Part shown: in pieces, positions 20,238-57,166 of the stretch
Layout of the letters: each line of letters opens with the position of its first letter
Numbering within the stretch: the stretch's first letter is position 1
Source: Victivallis vadensis
GTDB taxonomy: Bacteria > Verrucomicrobiota > Lentisphaeria > Victivallales > Victivallaceae
Assembly (NCBI RefSeq): GCF_003096415.1
Contig: NZ_QEKH01000011.1
Location: 1 to 64,000 of the forward strand
Direction of reading: 5' to 3'
DNA: 64,000 nucleotides
Translations under genes and position numbers: made by a program
The notes under the pieces: generated by a model
What the model was told of the DNA's origin: nothing
The model's database searches: none
The model's input: only the letters and a program-made list of their open reading frames with translations

Positions 20238-21062
20238 TCAGTCCGGGAACAGGGCGCGGAATTCCGCCGGGGCAGGCTGTGCGCCGTAAGGGGAGAGTTC
20301 AAACAGTTCGGCCCTCCGGATTTCATCGCCCCGCGCTCCGTAACGCTCGCGCAGGGCTTCACGGGCAAATTCCGCGGCCTGCCGGTCGCGGCCTCCCCAA
20401 TGGCGGTCGAGATACTCCTGCCGCTCCTGCCGGCTCATGCGATCCGGCTCCGGCGCTTCCAGCCCCATGTTCCACGGCAACCACTCGTAGAACTGGGAAC
20501 GGTGGCAGTCGAGCATCCGCAATTTGGTTTCCGCCACCGAATCGATCTCCGTCACCGCGTCGGCGCGGATCGGGCGCGGATCGGTGAAGGCGTCATATCC
20601 GTATGCGAAAACCGGGTCCTTCCGCGGAATCGGCGTATCGGCGCAGTACATCGGCACCCGGACCAGATACGCACAATCCATCACGCACTGGGCGGTCGCG
20701 CGGTGGTCGGCATGGTAATCGCAAAGGCGGTGGGAGATCACCACATCCGGCCCGAAATCCCGGATCACCCGGATCAGTTTTTCACGCAGTTCCAGCGTGC
20801 ATACGACATGGCAGTCGGGTACATCCAGAATCTCATATCCGGTCAGCCCGGCGACCTTCGCCGACTCCTGCGCTTCCCGGTGCCGCCGCAGCGCCAGCGC
20901 GGCAGGCTCCATCGCATAGTGTCCGCAATCGCCGCTGCTGACGGAGACGAATTTCACCCGGTGTCCAGCCTTCAGCAATTTGACCGCGCATCCTCCGAAC
21001 AACAGATCCGGGTCATCCGGATGCGCCCCGATCACAAGATAATTCCTCACCATTTCAGCCAT
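20238..21062 (-). CDS. PIG-L family deacetylase
   Basis: A 274-residue LmbE-like zinc hydrolase. AHPDD near residues 13-17 and the SHRLCDYHADHRAT segment supply the zinc ligands. The family removes N-acetyl groups from GlcNAc-containing small molecules or lipids; the substrate here is unknown. No signal peptide is seen, so it acts in the cytoplasm. It stands alone, next to a repeat-rich intergenic region. Confidence 0.88.
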   Translation of the reverse strand: MAEMVRNYLVIGAHPDDPDLLFGGCAVKLLKAGHRVKFVSVSSGDCGHYAMEPAALALRRHREAQESAKVAGLTGYEILDVPDCHVVCTLELREKLIRVIRDFGPDVVISHRLCDYHADHRATAQCVMDCAYLVRVPMYCADTPIPRKDPVFAYGYDAFTDPRPIRADAVTEIDSVAETKLRMLDCHRSQFYEWLPWNMGLEAPEPDRMSRQERQEYLDRHWGGRDRQAAEFAREALRERYGARGDEIRRAELFELSPYGAQPAPAEFRALFPD

Positions 21063-21447
21063 CTTTTTCCATCTCCGGTAAAAATCAATTCCATCCGTTT
21101 CAGAAGATAGCCCCTCCGGCTTCCCTTGTCAAGTTCCCGGTTCCTTAAGGAAAAGCAACCAACTCGAAGTCCATCCAATTTTGTCCCAGTGAACTTGCAG
21201 AGCCTTCTGTGCCAGTCCGTGGGTACAATGCCCGGAAAGGCAGAGTGGCAATCTTGGAGTGCGGAGATTCATCTCCGCTTTCAAGTCGCACGTGAACTTT
21301 ATATTCAACTTTGCATTGCATCAAGAACAGGCGAGGCTGCCCGGAGGGAAGTGAGCACCGCACCTCCGGCCTGCGGATGGGTCCGGGGGACGTCGCGCAC
21401 GTCCCCCGGACCCCCTCGCCGGTGGCGGAAGCCGGTCCGATTGCAAG
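21063..21447. other. Non-coding region with a 34-base dispersed motif and a long hairpin
   Basis: No credible gene. It contains a 34-base motif at 21256-21289, with a GGAGAT-TC-ATCTCC hairpin, that recurs with one difference at 34243-34276. A perfect 15-base-pair hairpin spans 21379-21413 (GGGTCCGGGGGACGT and its complement around CGCGC). Confidence 0.6.
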
Positions 21448-21813
21448 GCACTTCCGCTCGCGGGCGCGGCTTCGCCGCTTACTTGTCCGCCTGCGGCGGC
21501 CAACCCCTTCAACGCCCGCGTTGCGGGCTACGCCAGGGGGGGCTTCGCTCACTACGTTCGGCTTCGTCACTACCGTTCCTCGTTACTTGCTACCGCAAGT
21601 AATTCCCTCACATGCGTTCGCGGCGCTGACCGCGCTTATTGTGCGCCGCGTAAAAGGCAGCACGGCCTTATTATGCGCCGCGTAAAAGGTGACGTGGCCT
21701 TACTTATGCACCCAAAATGGTTTTGGTGACCGACCGATGCTTGGCATGTGCCCACCGCCGCACGCCCCCCGAAGGGGCATTGGCGTGCGCACCCGGCAGC
21801 GGCACCTTGCCGC
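21448..21813 (+). repeat. Left arm of a long imperfect inverted repeat around the GntR-type gene
   Basis: About 366 bases related in inverted orientation to 23189-23523. The match is strongest over 21541-21680 and at the end GCGGCACCTTGCCGC. A hairpin TTACTTGC-TACC-GCAAGTAA (21583-21602) corresponds to a differently sequenced but still paired hairpin in the other arm. Confidence 0.8.
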
Positions 21814-21855
21814 CCGCCTGTGCGACCCCGGAGAACGTAGAGCGCGTACTCGGCA

Positions 21856-21870
21856 GCGGCACCTTGCCGC
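21856..21870 (+). repeat. Short hairpin repeat GCGGCACCTTGCCGC
   Basis: A second copy of the hairpin that ends the left arm. Related hairpins with a conserved loop and changed stems occur at 21799, 23189, 37492, 54971, 55568, 59904 and 60283. It is followed by degenerate CTTGCCGCACTTGCCG-type repeats. Confidence 0.6.
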
Positions 21871-21945
21871 ACTTGCCGCACTTTGCCGTACTTGCCGCCC
21901 GCCGTCAAAATTCGCAATTTTTTCCGATTATTTCCGCTTCAGGGG

Positions 21946-21974
21946 TTGACATTTCATCTTTTCTATTGCATAAT
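21946..21974 (+). promoter_or_regulatory. Promoter of the GntR-type regulator
   Basis: A perfect TTGACA and CATAAT are separated by 17 bases, placing transcription start near 21981, about 23 bases before the ATG. Confidence 0.75.
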
Positions 21975-21976
21975 TA

Positions 21977-22016
21977 ATGTACAAACAGAAACGGAGATTG
22001 TACATGAATTATACAA
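21977..22016 (+). promoter_or_regulatory. Candidate autoregulatory operator
   Basis: ATGTACAA (21977-21984) and TTGTACAT (21998-22005) form a perfect inverted repeat spanning the predicted transcription start and the start codon, and TTATACAA follows at 22009-22016. TTGTAC half-sites recall those of AraR, a repressor with the same GntR-plus-LacI domain architecture. Binding by this protein is inferred. Confidence 0.5.
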
Positions 22017-23167
22017 ACACCGCCATCTGCTCTCCGCGCGAACAGGTGATCCGGAATGTGATGGCCCTGATCCGGGAGCGGGAGCTGCCGCCGGATGCCG
22101 AAGTTCCGGCGGAAAACCTGTTGGCGGAGCGGTTCGGCGTTTCGCGCGGCACGGTTCGTTCGGGGCTGGCCGTGCTGGCGGAACGCGGCGTGCTCGAAAA
22201 GCGCGGCCGCCGGATGCACGTGGTTCCGAAGCCGAAGGGTTCCGGTTCCTCGCTGATGAATCGGACCATCATTCTGCTCGGCCCCTCCGACAAGGACGAT
22301 GCGATCCGCAAGCGCAACTCCGGTTTCATGGATGCGATTCAGGCGGGAGCGCTTGAGGAGGTGATGGCCCGGAATATGCACTCTCTCTGGCTGAACGCCT
22401 CCCAGCTGCACGGCGGAGAACTCGAAGAACTCGCCCAGATCCGCCCCGGCGGGGCGCTGCTGTTCACTCCGGCTCATCCGACTCCGGCCTTCGACGCGGC
22501 GGCCCGGCGGCTCGCGGCGTCCGGGATTCCGGTGGTTTCCTCGGTTCACAGTACGCTCTACGAGAAGATCGACCATGTGCTGCCCGACCACGCCGAAGGC
22601 ACCCGACAGCTGACGGATGAACTGCTCCGGCGCGGCTGCAAACGCATCCTCTGCTATCTCGCCCGGGGACGCGCCGAATACTGGGTCGCCGCCCGTTACC
22701 GGGGCTACAGCGCCGCAATGCAGGCGGCCGGCCTCACTCCCGAACCGCTTCCCGAAAACTGTTACTGGGGCTGTAACTACGATGCCGAAGATGCGTGGCA
22801 GGAGTCCCGGTTCCACGAGGAAGTCCGGCTGGCGGCGGGATACCTGCTCGATTACTTCAGGCCGGGTGCGCCCGCGCCGGATGCGCTCCTCGCCAAGACC
22901 GACTGGGACGTGCCGATTCTCGCAGCGGCGCTCCGACTGCTCGGCCGCACTCCCGGCAAAGATGTGGTAATCGCCGGATACGACAACAAGATCGCTTTCA
23001 ACGGCTGGTCCCGACTGGAAAATTACACGCCTCCGCTGACCGTGGATAAAAGGAATAATGAAATCGGCCGCCGCATGACCGCCCGGCTGCTGACCCATAT
23101 CGACTCCCCGGAAACTTGGAAACCGGAAAATATTCTGGTAACTCCAGAGCTGATTACAATTTCATAA
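22004..23167 (+). CDS. GntR-type transcriptional regulator with LacI-like sensor domain
   Basis: A 387-residue regulator. A GntR winged helix-turn-helix occupies about residues 8-75 (VPAENLLAERFGVSRGTVRSGL). It is joined to a periplasmic-binding-protein-like sensor domain (about 85-385) of the LacI type, the architecture of AraR-like sugar regulators. It likely controls the downstream beta-helix/GH110-like genes in response to a sugar. The ATG at 22004 is chosen for its GGAGA site. The gene is bracketed by long inverted repeats, and TTGTAC palindromes overlap its start, suggesting autoregulation. Confidence 0.85.
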   Translation: MNYTNTAICSPREQVIRNVMALIRERELPPDAEVPAENLLAERFGVSRGTVRSGLAVLAERGVLEKRGRRMHVVPKPKGSGSSLMNRTIILLGPSDKDDAIRKRNSGFMDAIQAGALEEVMARNMHSLWLNASQLHGGELEELAQIRPGGALLFTPAHPTPAFDAAARRLAASGIPVVSSVHSTLYEKIDHVLPDHAEGTRQLTDELLRRGCKRILCYLARGRAEYWVAARYRGYSAAMQAAGLTPEPLPENCYWGCNYDAEDAWQESRFHEEVRLAAGYLLDYFRPGAPAPDALLAKTDWDVPILAAALRLLGRTPGKDVVIAGYDNKIAFNGWSRLENYTPPLTVDKRNNEIGRRMTARLLTHIDSPETWKPENILVTPELITIS

Positions 23168-23188
23168 CTCACGGTTATTTCGGCATAA

Positions 23189-23523
23189 GCGGCAAGGTGC
23201 CGCTGCCGGGTACGCGCTCTATGCCCTTCGGGGGGCGTGCGACCAGGCACAGGCAAGGCATCGGTCGGTCTGCATAACCACTTAAACGGCATGCAAATAA
23301 GGTCGCACAACCACTTACGCGGCGCACAACAAGCGCGGTCAGCGCCGCGAACGAATGTGAGGGAATTATTTTGCGGCAGCAAAATAACGAGGAACGATAG
23401 TGACGAAGCCGAACGTAGAGAGCGAAGCCCCTCCGGCGTAGTGAGCGCAGCGAACGATGAGGAGTTGACGGGCGCAGCCCGGCAAGTAAGGGGCGCTAGC
23501 CCCGCCCGCGAATGGAAGTGCTC
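23189..23523 (-). repeat. Right arm of the long inverted repeat around the GntR-type gene
   Basis: About 335 bases, the inverted counterpart of 21448-21813, beginning with GCGGCAAGGTGCCGC. Its hairpin TTATTTTGC-GGCA-GCAAAATAA (23366-23387) keeps pairing although the stem sequence differs from the left arm. No gene is visible from 23168 to 23811. Confidence 0.8.
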
Positions 23524-23811
23524 CGCAAGTCAACGGGAGTTCCGAGGCGAGCGGGGAGGTCCGGACGGGCGATCGTGCACGCCACAGGCGGGCAGGCCTT
23601 GAAAAAGGCCCTCCGGAGCCATCCGCAGTTCAAAGCGCAACCAGTTTGTTGCCTGGAATGGCATGGGAAGGTAGCTAAGCGTATGAGTGACTGCATGATT
23701 GCGTGCGACTTGACATCGGACGGCATTGGGCCGGACAAGTAAACATCGCCTTTGAGTTGTTGCCGGTAACGGCCCTGAAATAAAAAGCGACCTGTGAACA
23801 AAGGAGAAAAT
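23524..23811. other. Non-coding leader before the pseudopilin gene
   Basis: No gene seen. It contains small GC-rich hairpins and a TTGACA near 23709 with no good -10 box. The ribosome site AAAGGAG lies just before 23812. Confidence 0.4.
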
Positions 23812-24642
23812 ATGTATAACATGAGAAAGGATAAGCAGATGCAACACGAAAATTCGGCAATTTCTCTTAACATACCCGGTATTATGCGCCGGAATTTTAC
23901 TCTTATTGAGCTGCTCGTTGTGATAGCGATCATCACCATTCTCGCTTCCATGCTGCTTCCGGCGCTGAACTCGGCGCGGGAACGGGCGCGCTCTGCCAAA
24001 TGCCTGAGCCAGATCAAGCAGAACACTTTCGACATCATCAACTACGCGGACGATTACAGCGGTTATGCGCCGGTCTGCGTCAAAATGGGTGGTCTCAGCT
24101 ACGCCTGGCCCCGGTTGCTCTGGAAGCTCGGTTATTCCAAACCTCAGATGTTCGTCTGCCCTTCCGCGCAGGGCTACAACCGCGGCACCGAACTGCTCGG
24201 CCCCAAGTTCAATAACGACGGCAACAACTGGACTGCCGGCTGCCATTACGGAATGAACCGCTATTTCGGCACCTACGGAACCGGCGGCAACAAGTATTAT
24301 TATTTCCCGGATGATGCGGCAACCATCATCGGTAACAAGATTTATCCGATCAAAGTCACCCGCAGGGGATCGGAAACCATCATGCTGGCGGATTCCGTGG
24401 TCGCCCACGGCGCAACCGGGATTCCGGATGTGGAAGCCTACGGCGTTCCCTTCGGCACTCCGGCTCTCTCCCGGTCCAAGACCGTGCTGGACAATTGCCC
24501 CTACATGATCGATTCCCGCCACTCCGGCAATGCCAATGTATCATTCGTCGACGGCCATGCCGTGAGCAGACAGCGGGCGATTTTCGTCTATCAGGTCACC
24601 GACAAGCTCGACCGGTATTTCCTGCCGACCTTCAATCAATGA
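23812..24642 (+). CDS. Pseudopilin with prepilin-type cleavage/methylation domain (DUF1559-like)
   Basis: A 276-residue protein. A leader of about 28 residues precedes the type IV pilin-like motif [12 protein letters not shown], whose glutamate is E5 of the mature helix; the residue before the phenylalanine is Asn instead of the usual Gly. The globular part has conserved CPSA and a C-terminal SRHSGNANVSFVDGHA, the H...DG tail of this family. It is expected to be an inner-membrane-anchored pseudopilin. It heads a tight group with two secreted beta-helix proteins; the next start is 8 bases downstream. Confidence 0.88.
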   Translation: MYNMRKDKQMQHENSAISLNIPGIMRRNFTLIELLVVIAIITILASMLLPALNSARERARSAKCLSQIKQNTFDIINYADDYSGYAPVCVKMGGLSYAWPRLLWKLGYSKPQMFVCPSAQGYNRGTELLGPKFNNDGNNWTAGCHYGMNRYFGTYGTGGNKYYYFPDDAATIIGNKIYPIKVTRRGSETIMLADSVVAHGATGIPDVEAYGVPFGTPALSRSKTVLDNCPYMIDSRHSGNANVSFVDGHAVSRQRAIFVYQVTDKLDRYFLPTFNQ

Positions 24643-24650
24643 GGTATGAA

Positions 24651-26141
24651 ATGAAATTTCTGCTGACACTCTCCGCACTGCTGGCCGGAACGCTGCTGAC
24701 GGCGGCTCCGACGCTGTATGTGGACAACCTCAAAGGCAGCGACGCCAACGACGGCTCCCGGGAGAAGCCGCTCGCTTCGATCGAACGCGCCTGCAAACTG
24801 GTCAAAACCGGCGGGCGGATCGAAGTCGCCGACACCGGAACGCCCTATTCGCTTCCCTACGGCGGCCCCGGCAAGGAACGGGGATTGCGGCTGCTGACCG
24901 GCGGCACGGCGGATTCGCCGCTGGTGGTGGAGGGCAACGGAGCGGTGGTTTCGGGGCTGGCGGTAATTCCGGCGGAAGCGTGGAGCAAGGAGGCCGACGG
25001 CGTCTATTCGCTGCCGTTCGACCCGATGAGCAACTTTTTCCGCCGGGACATGAGCAAAAACTACTGGCTGCCCGGCACGCAGATCTGGTTTGTGAACGGC
25101 AAGGCCGCACCGAACCTGCTCGACCGTGAAACGCTGGAAAAAACGCCCAACGGCTTCTGGTGGAACAAAAAGGAGCGCAAGGTCCTCTACCGGTTGCCGG
25201 AGGGCAGACAGCTCTCCGACCTGAAAATCGAACTCCCCGCCAACTACGGCTTCTACATCCACCGCGACCACACGATTGTGCGCAACTTTACGATGATGTT
25301 TTCCTGGAACGACGGCTTCGACGCGGCGGAAACGCCGAAAAGTGCGATGTACCTCAACTGCCTGGCCTACAACAACTGCGGCCAGGGAATGTCGATCCAC
25401 GACGCGAGCAGCGTCTACTATCAGGATTGCGGCGCGGTGAACTGCGCCAGCTCGGCGGTCTGCAACGTCGGGCAGAGCAATGGAGTTTACAAACGGTGCG
25501 TGCTGATCGACAGCACCTTCGAGGCGGCGGTGTTCCTGAACAACGATTCGAGCGCGCTTTTCGAAGAGTGCCTGATCGCCGATGCGGAACCGGCGGAACT
25601 GGTCTGGCAGCGGGGCCGGTCGAAGATCACCTTTTCCAACTGCGTGCTGATCGGAAACGGGAAGAACAATCTGGCGATGCTGGAAGCGGGGGCGCTCTCC
25701 TTTTTCGGCTGCACGATGCGCAACGGCACCGGCTTCCTGTCGCTGGAGCCGCGTTCCGCGACCGGTTCGCTGAGCGTAGAAAAGTCGCTGCTGCGCGGCT
25801 TCGCCCGTTACTATGTGAAGCTGCCGGACCAGCCGGCCGCGCTGCGCGTCAACCTCGCCGGCAACCGGTACGCGCCGAATGCGGGGCACTGGTACAAAGG
25901 AAAATCCGAAGTTCCGGGGACCTCCCCCGCCCTGACGGCGCTGAAACTGGACCGAGGTTCCAAAGCCGAGGAGTTCCGGCTCACGGGGCGCAAGTCCAGT
26001 GAAAACCCCGGCGCTCCCGGCCGCCGTTCGCAGCGGATCGGCGCCCAATTGCCTGAACCGGTCTGGCAAATTTACGACCGTCTGAAAAATTATCAGGCCA
26101 CACCGGCCGGAATCGTCAAAAAAGGAGCTGTTTTAAAATGA
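24651..26141 (+). CDS. Secreted right-handed beta-helix protein
   Basis: A 496-residue protein with a signal peptide (LLAGTLLTAAP) and a DUF1565-like start TLYVDNLKGSDANDGS, then parallel beta-helix coils with recurring NCLAYNN, DCGAVNC and NCVLIGN rungs. Such folds are typical of polysaccharide lyases and glycoside hydrolases acting on extracellular glycans; no catalytic residues can be assigned with confidence. The ATG at 24651 with GAGG is chosen over a long upstream open frame that overlaps the pseudopilin gene. It overlaps the next gene by ATGA. Confidence 0.8.
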   Translation: MKFLLTLSALLAGTLLTAAPTLYVDNLKGSDANDGSREKPLASIERACKLVKTGGRIEVADTGTPYSLPYGGPGKERGLRLLTGGTADSPLVVEGNGAVVSGLAVIPAEAWSKEADGVYSLPFDPMSNFFRRDMSKNYWLPGTQIWFVNGKAAPNLLDRETLEKTPNGFWWNKKERKVLYRLPEGRQLSDLKIELPANYGFYIHRDHTIVRNFTMMFSWNDGFDAAETPKSAMYLNCLAYNNCGQGMSIHDASSVYYQDCGAVNCASSAVCNVGQSNGVYKRCVLIDSTFEAAVFLNNDSSALFEECLIADAEPAELVWQRGRSKITFSNCVLIGNGKNNLAMLEAGALSFFGCTMRNGTGFLSLEPRSATGSLSVEKSLLRGFARYYVKLPDQPAALRVNLAGNRYAPNAGHWYKGKSEVPGTSPALTALKLDRGSKAEEFRLTGRKSSENPGAPGRRSQRIGAQLPEPVWQIYDRLKNYQATPAGIVKKGAVLK

Positions 26142-27793
26142 AATATTCATTGTTTTTCGCCCTGCCGCTGCTGGCCGGGACGCTGGCGGCCGCCCCGGTC
26201 GGACTGCAGCAGGAGATCGCCGCCGGAATTTCCTCCGGCAAAAAGGAGATCGTGCTTACGCAGCCCGAATACCGTTCCGGCCGCACCGTCGAACTGAAAA
26301 AACTCGACGGCGTGACCATCGACGGCAACGGCGCCAGACTGGTGATGACCGACCTGAAACACGCGGTCCGGCTGAGCAACTGCCGCAATGTGACCGTCAA
26401 AAACCTGACGGTCGACTACGACCCGCTGCCTTTCACACAGGGGGTGATCACCTCGGTTTCGCCGGATTCCCGGATAGTGGAGTTCACGATCGACAAGGGC
26501 TATCCCGACCTGACCGGCCCCTACGCGGTGGGGCGGATGCACCTGTTCACCGCCGACGGCAAAGAGTGGAAGCGCGATGCCGCCGACCTCTACGGCAGGA
26601 CCGAAATCATCGACGCCCGGCACGGCCGGTTCCGCGCCTCGAAACCGGAGCCGGCGTTCGCCGCGGGGGACCGGGTCGCGCTGAACCAGCGCAAGAACGG
26701 CGCGTTTTACCTGACCGGCTGCGGACCGGTGCGCTTTGAAAACATCACCATCCACACCTGCCCCAGCCTCGGTTTCTGCAACCGCTTCAGCGAGGGCGGC
26801 GACGAATTGATCAATGTGAAACTGGCGCGCGGCCCCAGACCGGCGGAGGCCGACGCGGAGCGGCTGCTTTCGACCTGCGCCGACGGGCTGAACTACGCCT
26901 ATATCCGGCGCGGCCCCAAGCTGGTCAACTGCGACTTCTCCTTTATGGGGGACGATTCGGTGAACCTGCACTCCGTCGCGCTGCCGGTCGTCCAGTTGCT
27001 GGATGAAACCACCTTCGACACACTCCGCCCCTATAAGCACGAGGAGTTCGCCAAAGTGGTCCGCCCCGGCGACAGACTGCGGCTGCTCGATCCTTCCGAT
27101 TATTCCGTCGTCGGAGAAGCGGTGATCAGAAGTTTCCGCCCCTCCCCGCGCAAGTATGACCGGGAAACGCTGAAGAAGTTCTACTTCAACCGCGGCGACG
27201 GGCTCAAGGACTGGACCGCCTATGAAATCACCCTCGAACCCGGCGGCGCTCCGGTGAAGGCCGGCCTCTTTTTCGACATTCCCGCCATCGGCGCGAACGG
27301 CTTTGAAATCCGCGACTCCCGCTTCCACGACCATCGCGGGCGGGCGCTGCGCATCATGGCCTCCGACGGCGTGATCGAAAACAACCGTTTCGAGCGGATC
27401 AAACACGCCGCGATCACCGTCGGCGCCGAATACGGCTACTGGCGCGAAGCGGGCTGGGTGGAGAATATTCAGATCCGCAATAACAAAATCCGTGACGTCG
27501 GCTGCAATATGATGCTCCAGCCGGACTCCTATGCCAACGGCGCGATCAGCGTTTTCGCCCGGCTGGAAGATTACTCCGGCACCTTCAAGGGCAACCGGAA
27601 CATCACCATCACCGGGAACTCCGTCGACACCTGCCCCGCCGCCGGAATTTTCCTCTTTGCCGCTGACGGCGTCACCCTCAAAGACAACCGTCTCGTGAAC
27701 ACCGCGTTCGGCAAAAAGACGCCGGGCCGCGACTGCGGCTTCACCGGCCTGAAACCGGTCTGGATCATCAACTCCGCCAACGTCACCCAATAG
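26138..27793 (+). CDS. Secreted GH110-like beta-helix glycosidase
   Basis: A 551-residue protein with a signal peptide (LLAGTLAAAP). Its beta-helix core resembles GH110 alpha-1,3-galactosidases: a TIDGNGARLV start, STCADGLNYAYIRRGPK and FSFMGDDSVNLHS, then repeated N..I..N rungs near the end. GH110 enzymes remove terminal alpha-1,3-galactose from blood-group-like glycans in an inverting reaction. The assignment is by motif pattern; another beta-helix hydrolase family is possible. Its start overlaps the preceding stop (ATGA), so the two secreted proteins are probably made together. A terminator follows. Confidence 0.7.
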   Translation: MKYSLFFALPLLAGTLAAAPVGLQQEIAAGISSGKKEIVLTQPEYRSGRTVELKKLDGVTIDGNGARLVMTDLKHAVRLSNCRNVTVKNLTVDYDPLPFTQGVITSVSPDSRIVEFTIDKGYPDLTGPYAVGRMHLFTADGKEWKRDAADLYGRTEIIDARHGRFRASKPEPAFAAGDRVALNQRKNGAFYLTGCGPVRFENITIHTCPSLGFCNRFSEGGDELINVKLARGPRPAEADAERLLSTCADGLNYAYIRRGPKLVNCDFSFMGDDSVNLHSVALPVVQLLDETTFDTLRPYKHEEFAKVVRPGDRLRLLDPSDYSVVGEAVIRSFRPSPRKYDRETLKKFYFNRGDGLKDWTAYEITLEPGGAPVKAGLFFDIPAIGANGFEIRDSRFHDHRGRALRIMASDGVIENNRFERIKHAAITVGAEYGYWREAGWVENIQIRNNKIRDVGCNMMLQPDSYANGAISVFARLEDYSGTFKGNRNITITGNSVDTCPAAGIFLFAADGVTLKDNRLVNTAFGKKTPGRDCGFTGLKPVWIINSANVTQ

Positions 27794-54893: not shown

Positions 54894-54912
54894 ATTCTTT
54901 TTTCGCACTCCC

Positions 54913-55175
54913 CACTCCGACATCGGGGATTTCGCCTTCGGCGACCAAGGCGCTTCGCCCTTGGAACCCGACCGGCAAGGTGCCGGTGCCGAATACTTGA
55001 GATCCGGGAAAACCGTTCCGGTTTTCCCTCCGGAAGGGGGAGGCTCTGGTAGAGACAGGCAGGGTTGTACAGGAGCGGCACACCGCTCCGGTCGGCGCAA
55101 AGCCCGCTTTTTTGCGGGCTTTAGGCACTCCCTGCGCCTGCTGCCGCCGGAGGTCACGCGCGGAACCTCCAGATG
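54913..55175 (+). repeat. Left arm of a 263/261-base inverted repeat
   Basis: A near-identical inverted partner lies at 55381-55641. It contains at least five hairpins in series, including ACCGGCA-AGG-TGCCGGT (54971-54987), GGGAAAACCG-TTC-CGGTTTTCCC (55006-55028), GGAGCGG...CCGCTCC and AAAGCCCGC-TTTTTT-GCGGGCTTT (55099-55122). Confidence 0.9.
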
Positions 55176-55380: not shown

Positions 55381-55641
55381 CATCTGGAGGTTCCGAGCGT
55401 GACCTCCGGCGGCAGCAGGCGCAGGGAGTGCCTAAAGCCTGCAAAAAAGCAGGCTTTGTGCCGACCGGAGCGGTGTGCCGCTCCTGTACAACCCTGCCTG
55501 TCTCCAGCAGAGCCTCCCCTCCCCGGAGGAAAAGGCGGTACGCCTTTCCCGGCTCTCGTACCCGGCGCCGGCACCTTGCCGGTCGGGTTCCAAGGGCGAA
55601 GCGCCTTGGTCGCCAAAGGCGAAATCCCCGATGCCGGAGTG
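55381..55641 (-). repeat. Right arm of the 263/261-base inverted repeat
   Basis: The inverted partner of 54913-55175. Where it differs, several changes are paired within hairpins: AAAGCCTGC-AAAAAA-GCAGGCTTT (55434-55457) and AAAGGCG-GTA-CGCCTTT (55531-55547). It ends 8 bases before the lysS stop. Confidence 0.9.
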
Positions 55642-55648
55642 TGGAACC

Positions 55649-57166
55649 TTACTTTTTGAGCTTCATCTGGGGGAACAGGATCACGTCGCGGATGGATTCC
55701 GCACCGGTCAGGATCATGACCAGACGGTCGATGCCGACGCCCATGCCGCCGGCGGGAGGCATACCGTGTTCCAGGGCGACGAGGAAGTCTTCGTCCACCT
55801 TTTCGGCGAGCACATCGCCCTCCTGCTTGTTTTTCTCGAACTGCTCCATCAGGCGTTGACGCTGGATGATCGGATTGTTGAGCTCGGAGTAGGCGGGGGC
55901 GACTTCAACGCCGTTGATGCCGAGTTCAAAAACGTCCACATGGGTCGGATCGTCCGGGCAGCCCTTGGCGAGCGGCAGCAGTTCGACCGGAATGCGGGTC
56001 ACGAAAGTCGGCTGAATCAGGGTCGGTTCGACGAGTTTTTCGTAGAGTTCGTTGGTCACGTCGAGGTCGGACATGCCGGTGTGAACGTCGAGTTTCAGCT
56101 CCTGCCCGCGTTTGATCCGCTCCTCCGGGGTGAGCTGGAACCAGTCCGCCCCGCCCTTTTCCTCGCAGAGTTCGTTGTAGGTCGCGCGGCGCCACGGCGG
56201 GGTCAGGTCGATCACCTTGCCGTTGCCGTGGTCGATTTTCAACGTGCCGACGGTCTTCATCGCGACGGTGGTGATCAGAGATTCGATCAGCTCCATCATG
56301 GTGCGGCAGTCGCCGTAGGCCTGATAGATTTCCATCATCGTAAATTCCGGGTTGTGGCGGCGGTCCATGCCCTCGTTGCGGAAGTTCCGGCCGAGTTCGT
56401 AGACCTTCTCGAAGCCGCCGACCAGCAGCCGCTTCAGATAAAGTTCGGGGGCGATGCGCATGTACATCGTCGAACTCAGCGCCTCGTAATAGGTGGTGAA
56501 GGGGTTGGCCGACGCGCCGCCCGCGAGCGCCTGCAGCATCGGGGTTTCGACCTCCATAAAGCCGCGCCCGTTCATGAAATTGCGGATTTCGGCCAGAATG
56601 CGGCTGCGCAGCTTCAGCACCCGGAAACTCTCCTCGTTGGTGATCAGGTCGAGGTAACGCTGGCGGTAGCGCTGTTCGATATCGACGAGGCCGTGATACT
56701 TTTCCGGCAGCGGACGCAGTGACTTGGAGAGCAGCGTGCACTCGTGGACGCGGATGGTCAATTCCCCCATGCGGGTCACGAAAGTCGGTCCCTTGATGCC
56801 GACGATGTCGCCGATATCGAGCTTTTTGAAGATGGCGAACGCTTCCTCGCCGATCTCGCTCTTGCCGACGAAAAGCTGGATTTTGCCGGTGCTGTCCTTG
56901 AGGTCGGCGAAGATCGACTTGCCCATGCCGCGCTTGGCCATCAGCCGGCCGGCGACCACGACTTCGGGGCCGAATTCGCCTTCGGCGGGAGCCTTGAAAT
57001 CGGCGCGGACCTGTTCGATCATCTGTGCGCCGGGAAAAGCCTGGCCGTAGGGATCGATCCCGGCGGCTTCCAGCTCCTTGAGCTTGGCGAGGCGCTGGGC
57101 GAACAGTATGTGCATATCCGGTTCCGCCGGCTCCGCGGCCGGGACATTTTTCGTTTCATCGCTCAT
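55649..57166 (-). CDS. lysS: Lysyl-tRNA synthetase, class II
   Basis: A 505-residue class II synthetase. The N-terminal OB-fold anticodon domain (about 65-175) precedes motif 2 (RNFRNEGMDRRHNPEFTMMEIY) and motif 3 (GGMGVGIDRLVMIL). It charges tRNA-Lys. Single gene, divergent from hppA, with promoter-like boxes at 57223-57251. Confidence 0.97.
   Translation of the reverse strand: MSDETKNVPAAEPAEPDMHILFAQRLAKLKELEAAGIDPYGQAFPGAQMIEQVRADFKAPAEGEFGPEVVVAGRLMAKRGMGKSIFADLKDSTGKIQLFVGKSEIGEEAFAIFKKLDIGDIVGIKGPTFVTRMGELTIRVHECTLLSKSLRPLPEKYHGLVDIEQRYRQRYLDLITNEESFRVLKLRSRILAEIRNFMNGRGFMEVETPMLQALAGGASANPFTTYYEALSSTMYMRIAPELYLKRLLVGGFEKVYELGRNFRNEGMDRRHNPEFTMMEIYQAYGDCRTMMELIESLITTVAMKTVGTLKIDHGNGKVIDLTPPWRRATYNELCEEKGGADWFQLTPEERIKRGQELKLDVHTGMSDLDVTNELYEKLVEPTLIQPTFVTRIPVELLPLAKGCPDDPTHVDVFELGINGVEVAPAYSELNNPIIQRQRLMEQFEKNKQEGDVLAEKVDEDFLVALEHGMPPAGGMGVGIDRLVMILTGAESIRDVILFPQMKLKK

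What the first reader, a model, noticed from the sequence alone, without database searches (positions are those of the whole stretch)
21448..23523. A sugar-sensing regulator gene bracketed by long inverted repeats
Arms of about 366 and 335 bases face each other around the GntR-type gene and its promoter. One internal hairpin covaries between arms (TTACTTGC/GCAAGTAA versus TTATTTTGC/GCAAAATAA). Homologous recombination between the arms would flip the regulator with respect to the downstream glycan genes, giving a possible on/off switch; alternatively the segment moved in as a cassette.
Basis: partly seen in the sequence, partly recalled or inferred. Interest (0 to 1): 0.62.

Follow-up and report, generated by a model that had tools for sequence, protein, structure and literature searches.

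The report
Repeat pair beside a flip-type switch
The two facing repeats are members of a common hairpin-rich repeat family, and one of them lies inside a stretch of DNA that, at sister genes of this bacterium and its relatives, appears to flip over to turn surface-protein genes on and off.

Summary
The inverted arms are real (75.5% identity over 371 aligned columns), but they are two of at least 51 dispersed copies of a hairpin-chain repeat in this genome and among the least alike pairs of the family (rank 46 of 49). Recombination between them is a poor candidate for a switch. The right arm belongs to a subtype (B) that sits between a sugar regulator and a pseudopilin gene. At sister loci this B segment, which carries the pseudopilin's ribosome-binding site, start codon and leader, lies between short inverted dif-like sites. 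The central hexamer is identical within 15 of 15 pairs in one congener and 19 of 20 in another, and both ON and OFF arrangements occur. At one locus of the window's own genome the assembly holds both junctions. In the window only one site survives (23867-23888) and the pseudopilin reads through it with its own start, so this copy is probably locked ON. Best reading: a bank of invertible start regions for surface proteins, probably driven by XerC/XerD.

The parts
21254..21898 (+).
   Evidence: Comparison with the other copies; ends estimated by comparison, not proven
23181..23779 (-).
   Evidence: B-type arrangement regulator - B - pseudopilin; ends estimated
21946..21974 (+). Promoter-like site TTGACA-17-CATAAT for gntR, outside the A repeat
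   Evidence: Consensus scan
21977..23167 (+). Regulator: GntR helix-turn-helix plus LacI-type sugar-binding domain
   Evidence: Pfam GntR 2.1e-10, Peripla_BP_3 8.7e-13
20238..21062 (-). PIG-L family deacetylase, divergent from gntR
   Evidence: Pfam PIG-L 6.2e-26
23801..23806 (+). Ribosome-binding-site-like AAGGAG of the pseudopilin gene, on the segment that flips at sister loci
   Evidence: Sequence
23812..24642 (+). Pseudopilin gene (leader MYNMRKDKQMQHENSAISLNIPGIMRRN, then [12 protein letters not shown]...)
   Evidence: NCBIfam TIGR02532 above its cut-off; translation
23867..23888 (+). Intact dif-like site TTAACATACCCGGTATTATGCG inside the pseudopilin leader codons; 28-bp dif format spans 23865-23892
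23177..23189 (-). Probable remnant of the second dif-like site: the tail reads CCGCTTATGCCGAAAT where sister tails read CCGCTTAACATACTNGGCATTATGCGAAAT (about 15 bases missing between two TTA repeats)
   Evidence: inferred
24645..26141 (+). Right-handed beta-helix protein downstream of the pseudopilin
   Evidence: Pfam Beta_helix 9.9e-09
26138..27793 (+). Second beta-helix/NosD-like protein
   Evidence: Pfam Beta_helix 3.4e-12

Best explanation
The arms are two diverged members (A and B) of a dispersed hairpin-chain repeat. The B member fills the space between a sugar regulator and a pseudopilin gene of a phase-variable type. At intact loci the B segment also carries the pseudopilin's ribosome-binding site, start codon and leader codons, and is bounded by two inverted dif-like sites: one inside the leader codons, the other next to the regulator's end. 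Strand exchange at the two sites, which need the same central six bases, flips the segment. In one orientation start and leader are fused in frame to the pseudopilin body (ON); in the other the leader runs into a short dead end and the body has no start (OFF). The most likely enzymes are the cell's own XerC and XerD (inferred). In the window the outer site next to gntR has been lost, apparently by a small deletion, so the copy is probably locked ON (inferred). Shown: site pairs, matching central hexamers, ON and OFF arrangements, and one locus with both junctions in the assembly. Not shown: inversion in living cells, the enzyme, and the role of the hairpins.
For: Type B copies lie between a gene whose 3' end meets the tail and a pseudopilin whose 5' end meets the head: 17 of 24 non-A copies by gene calling, all 17 matching pilin families. 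Of 17 tail-side neighbours examined, 7 match GntR, 4 LacI, 3 AraC-type HTH. Dif-like sites (up to 3 mismatches) flank 14 of 24 non-A copies and 0 of 27 A copies. Pattern search of 25 genomes: 20 sites in G000, 33 in G005, 46 in G007, mostly inverted pairs, against 0-3 (usually one, the likely chromosomal dif) in the other 22. Central hexamer identical within 15 of 15 pairs (G005) and 19 of 20 (G007), 0 of 10,000 shuffles as high in either; 5 of 6 pairs in G000. States: G005 3 ON, 10 OFF, 2 unassigned; G007 5 ON, 10 OFF, 5 unassigned. Both junctions in one assembly: contig C8 carries the same 73 bases outside both sites, and contig C45 shares its first 161 bases, site included, with C8 and then continues into the pseudopilin body. 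Strong Xer-type recombinases: switch-bearing G000, G007, G067, G069 and G075 have just two each, as do most switch-less genomes (12 of 15 genomes examined have two). In G000 these match XerD (over the cut-off) and XerC (best hit, under the cut-off).
Against: No reads were available; the C8/C45 junctions could be a mis-assembly, and G007 is a MAG that may mix strains. The window has only one site, so it is not itself a working switch. Two loci of G000 (L092, L093) have sites whose central hexamers differ and would not be expected to recombine. G000 also has 13 matches to the phage-integrase family and 6 matches to the serine resolvase family, and G005 has four strong tyrosine recombinases, so another enzyme is possible. 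Six of nine genomes of the genus lack the site arrays.
Confidence: 0.78

Rival explanations
1. One reading: the arms recombine homologously and flip the regulator gene relative to the glycan genes.
For: Arms are inverted and about 370 columns long.
Against: 75% identity, longest shared stretch 23 bases; the partner arm ranks 46 of 49 among relatives of the left arm and 44 of 49 among those of the right, so most other copies are better recombination partners. The gntR promoter-like site lies between the arms with the gene, so it would flip together with it and expression need not change.
Confidence: 0.04
2. The dif-like sites mark mobile Xer modules (like pdif modules or IMEX), so the B segments are cassettes that move by XerC/D rather than switches.
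For: Inverted dif-like pairs around short segments resemble Acinetobacter pdif modules (PMC12907356, abstract); the repeat family is dispersed.
Against: In the ON form the leader on the segment is in frame with the flanking gene body, and OFF forms keep that body start-less; I saw no cargo gene in the segments; in G007 19 of 20 pairs are 104-106 bp apart, start to start; C8/C45 shows inversion, not gain or loss.
Confidence: 0.12
3. A switch by inversion, but driven by a dedicated tyrosine recombinase rather than XerC/XerD.
For: 13 matches to the integrase family in G000, several of them weak; many known invertons have invertase genes nearby (PMC11892184, passages).
Against: The sites resemble the genome's own dif (aattaacataa CATACA ttatgcgacgt); no strong extra Xer-type gene tracks with the switches in the 15 genomes examined, G005 apart.
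Confidence: 0.3
4. The arms are a structured RNA (leader or attenuator) and the inverted arrangement is incidental.
For: Stems keep pairing through compensatory changes: 98.7% of 1355 cells paired, covariation score 0.226 against 0.081 in shuffles; folds below shuffles on both strands, z -3.4 and -3.6.
Against: No Rfam match; both strands fold about equally; A copies lie in all gene orientations; a few discrete stem alleles could also come from template switching at DNA level; the 105-bp switches of G007 have no room for the array.
Confidence: 0.15

Closest known systems
Ureaplasma parvum mba and UU172 inversion loci, XerC-mediated (PMC3599477: abstract and passages read)
   Same: Short inverted repeats at surface-protein genes (for UU172 one lies in the 5' coding sequence); a Xer-family recombinase is the proposed inverter
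   Different: XerC bound those repeats while a different enzyme (CodV) bound the candidate dif; two loci only; here dozens of loci carry copies close to the chromosomal dif
XerCD/dif chromosome dimer resolution (PMC5357621 and PMC3025954: passages read)
   Same: 11-6-11 site layout; arms TTAACATA and TTATGCG as in the family's usually single-copy site; XerC and XerD genes present
   Different: Sites in inverted pairs at genes rather than one site at the terminus; central hexamer varies between loci but matches within a locus
Acinetobacter pdif/dif modules (PMC12907356: abstract read)
   Same: Segments bounded by extra dif-like sites, also on the chromosome
   Different: Those carry cargo genes and are held to move; here the segment holds a start region and its orientation sets the reading of a fixed gene
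Akkermansia cps1 inverton (PMC13343947: passages read)
   Same: Invertible element controlling a surface product in the Verrucomicrobiota, a phylum said there to be rich in invertons
   Different: Reported motif CGGATT..AATCCG, not dif-like; a capsule locus, not pseudopilins
REP/BIME-type dispersed hairpin repeats (recalled, no call)
   Same: Many intergenic copies, hairpin-rich
   Different: Much longer (about 600 bp), modular, with a B subtype tied to one gene family; a link to a RAYT transposase was not tested

Membership tests
Inverton (site-specific invertible on/off element) | Inverted short repeats bounding the segment | tested here: met
   Pairs in G000, G005, G007; in the window itself only one site remains, so the window copy does not meet it
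Inverton (site-specific invertible on/off element) | Both orientations in one population | tested here: inconclusive
   Seen in the assembly at one locus, C8/C45; no reads available, window locus not shown
Inverton (site-specific invertible on/off element) | Orientation changes expression of a gene | tested here: inconclusive
   Reading-frame logic gives ON and OFF forms; expression not measured
Xer/dif site | Two half-sites around a 6-bp centre, as in the genome's own dif | tested here: met
   tcttaacatac CCGGTA ttatgcgccgg against aattaacataa CATACA ttatgcgacgt
Xer/dif site | Same centre in both recombining sites | tested here: met
   15 of 15 and 19 of 20 pairs in G005 and G007; 5 of 6 in G000
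Xer/dif site | Bound and recombined by XerC and XerD | not testable with these tools
   Genes present; needs biochemistry
Acinetobacter-type pdif mobile module | Cargo gene between the sites | tested here: not met
   Segments of about 82-853 bp between sites hold leader, RBS and, in G000 and G005, hairpins; no gene seen
Rfam-described structured RNA | Match at gathering score | tested here: not met
   Only a tRNA in the window
Homologous-recombination inversion between long repeats | Long near-identical arms | tested here: not met
   75.5% identity, longest exact match 23 bases

The most novel reading that the evidence does not exclude
Several Lentisphaeria genomes have co-opted the housekeeping chromosome-dimer machinery (XerC/XerD and dif-like sites) to run a genome-wide bank of independent start-region inversions. 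Each flips the ribosome-binding site and leader codons of a surface protein (pseudopilins beside sugar regulators; similar pairs lie beside AIDA-type adhesins in related genera). The locus-specific central hexamers act as addresses that keep each switch from recombining with the others or with dif.
Probability: 0.5. Interest if true: 0.85.

Novelty: new variant of a known kind. Interest (0 to 1): 0.7.

Why it matters
If true, a system thought of as housekeeping (dimer resolution at a single dif) also drives multi-locus phase variation, and the flipped unit is a start region with part of the coding sequence rather than only a promoter. It would explain how glycan-degrading Lentisphaeria diversify a large pseudopilin family cell by cell. 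It also raises a testable question: how can many dif-like sites coexist with the real dif without harmful rearrangements? The locus-specific central hexamers suggest an answer.

Tried and rejected
Homologous recombination between the arms: rejected as likely. Structured-RNA family: no Rfam match; covariation is real but does not tell RNA from DNA. Orthologues of the window locus: none close in the genus, and a protein scan of genome contigs found none. A dif check by GC skew was dropped because the candidate dif lies 88 bases from a contig end. Contig breaks at the G007 sites were not counted as proof of inversion, because paralogous loci there are near-identical and would break an assembly too. 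The automatic pairing mis-paired two G000 loci (L090, L106), so G000 counts are taken. PMC12985086 (passages) surveys reverse-complement triplets in Victivallis vadensis and other genomes; the passages shown do not describe these repeats.

Full report
1. Observation. The two arms are present and inverted as described: 21448-21813 against 23189-23521, 75.5% identity over 371 columns. The covarying hairpin is real. A search of the window's own genome (G000, 5.2 Mb, 87 contigs, 99.5% complete) shows that the arms are not private to this locus. The left arm gives 86 matches at E <= 0.001, with only 40 of 254 candidates scored. The family's conserved 27-mer occurs at 51 places with up to 3 mismatches, against 0 for the reversed control.

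2. The repeat family. Fifty of the 51 copies were aligned over the core; one lies too close to a contig end. The repeat is a chain of hairpins whose stems change on both sides together: 126 of 1355 pair cells carry a double change, against a mean of 48 in shuffles, and 98.7% of cells pair. Both strands of the left copy fold better than shuffles (z -3.4 and -3.6, 20 shuffles each). No Rfam family matches. Upstream modules define two subtypes. In the script, 27 copies were typed A, 21 B, and 3 were left unassigned. A copies lie in every gene orientation (8, 7, 7 and 4 copies, plus one at a contig end). B copies mostly have a pseudopilin gene reading away from the head and a regulator gene running into the tail. 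Two copies typed B (L111, L116) lack a pseudopilin neighbour, and one typed A (L112) has one. In the window the left arm is A (between a divergent PIG-L deacetylase and gntR) and the right arm is B (between gntR and a pseudopilin). The two are less alike than most pairs: 82.6% over the core, rank 46 of 49 among the left arm's relatives, longest shared stretch 23 bases. This argues against recombination or gene conversion between them.

3. The switch. Reading the ends of B copies revealed a second, short inverted repeat outside the arms. Its head-side copy lies inside the pseudopilin leader codons (window 23867-23888, TTAACATACCCGGTATTATGCG). Its tail-side copy lies next to the regulator's end. 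In G000, 26 places match TTAACATACNNGGYATTATGCG with up to 3 mismatches, control 0. With up to 2 mismatches, 6 inverted pairs bound B copies, 581-875 bp apart, and 5 of the 6 share the central hexamer. L092 does not, nor does L093 when 3 mismatches are allowed. Sites with up to 3 mismatches flank 14 of 24 non-A copies and none of 27 A copies.

4. Relatives. A relaxed search of 25 genomes found, in most genomes, a usually single site with near-identical arms (TTAACATAA-six bases-TTATGCG), which I take to be the chromosomal dif (layout as in PMC5357621, passages). Three of nine genomes of the genus have arrays: G000 20 sites, G005 33, G007 46. In a stricter search of 78 genomes of the family, G067, G068, G069 and G075 also show inverted pairs about 131 bp apart. 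In G005, 15 of 15 pairs share the central hexamer; in G007, 19 of 20; shuffles gave means of 5.8 and 7.0, with 0 of 10,000 as high in each. Identity of the centre within a pair, and variation between pairs, is what recombination at the pair would require.

5. ON and OFF. For each pair I asked whether the side with ribosome-binding site, ATG and leader faces the FTLIELL body. G005: 3 ON, 10 OFF, 2 unassigned of 15. G007: 5 ON, 10 OFF, 5 unassigned of 20. In G069, read by eye, two loci are ON (L273, L278) and three OFF (L271, L274, L277). In G007 the sites are about 105 bp apart, leaving about 83 bp between them, so the segment holds little more than leader, start and ribosome-binding site. I infer that a start region, not necessarily a promoter, is flipped. 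In G067 and G075 pairs lie beside AIDA-type adhesin genes (3 of the 6 proteins tested from G067, G068 and G075 matched) and a TibC-like glycosyltransferase, so the targets may be surface functions more broadly.

6. Both orientations in one assembly. On contig C8 the 73 bases outside the right-hand site are identical, 73 of 73, to those outside the left-hand site. Contig C45 begins with 161 bases identical to C8, ending exactly at the site, and then continues into a pseudopilin body instead. The simplest reading is that the sequenced DNA held both orientations. A mis-assembly cannot be excluded without reads.

7. Enzyme. G000 has one XerD (NCBIfam TIGR02225, above cut-off) and one XerC-like protein (best hit TIGR02224, 318.9 bits against a cut-off of 335.15). 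Among 15 genomes searched for integrase-family matches at E <= 1e-20, 12 have two; G003 has one, G022 three and G005 four. So, G005 apart, no extra strong Xer-type gene goes with the switches. XerC/XerD is the favoured but unproven enzyme pair; 13 integrase-family matches of all strengths exist in G000.

8. The window locus. The pseudopilin (23812-24642) has an AAGGAG site and a leader that reads in frame through the intact dif-like site: the ON form. The expected second site is absent (the best other window matches have 3 or more mismatches and lie elsewhere). The tail sequence looks like the canonical end with about 15 bases deleted between two TTA repeats. I conclude, as inference, that this switch is locked ON.

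9. Role of the arms. I think the hairpin array inside the B segment most likely acts as a transcription barrier that insulates regulator and pseudopilin in either orientation, and that A copies are the same repeat spread elsewhere. The 105-bp switches of G007, too short for any array, show that it is not needed for switching as such. Confidence in this part is low, about 0.35.

10. Novelty. Xer-driven inversion of surface genes is known in Ureaplasma (PMC3599477, abstract and passages), extra dif-like sites bounding modules in Acinetobacter (PMC12907356, abstract), and invertons in Akkermansia (PMC13343947, passages). A bank of inverted dif-like pairs at pseudopilin leaders was not found in the searches made (44, 55, 56, 59, 62, 73, 84, 91; listings only, except the papers named), but two key papers are not in the library.

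Noticed in passing
window 54900-55040 and 55400-55650: A second hairpin-rich inverted repeat pair (copies ending in GCCGCCGGAGGTCACGC and facing each other); it contains GGCAAGGTGCCGGTGCC-like motifs similar to the tails of the main family.
   Followed up: no
L267, L268, L280 (G067, G075): Inverted dif-like pairs about 131 bp apart lie beside AIDA-type adhesin genes, and at L279 beside a TibC-like glycosyltransferase.
   Followed up: partly
L270 (G068) 1402-2748: A secreted-looking protein with no Pfam match begins inside a dif-like switch with a leader (SSNTSHNVYYA) like that of the G069 pseudopilins.
   Followed up: no
G000 C16:191, C26:1, C2:272084 (L086, L160, L168): Three contig ends carry dif-like sites with the same centre (TTGGCA) but three different outer flanks, two of them pseudopilin genes; perhaps one segment serving more than one gene.
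   Followed up: partly
window 37434 and 43398, minus strand: Two more pseudopilin N-termini (FTLIELL...) lie in the window without a good dif-like site nearby.
   Followed up: no
G024 and G036 (genus g17): The family's conserved box recurs as CATGCGTTCGCGGCCCTGACCGGGC, a double change that keeps the stem paired, often near contig ends.
   Followed up: partly
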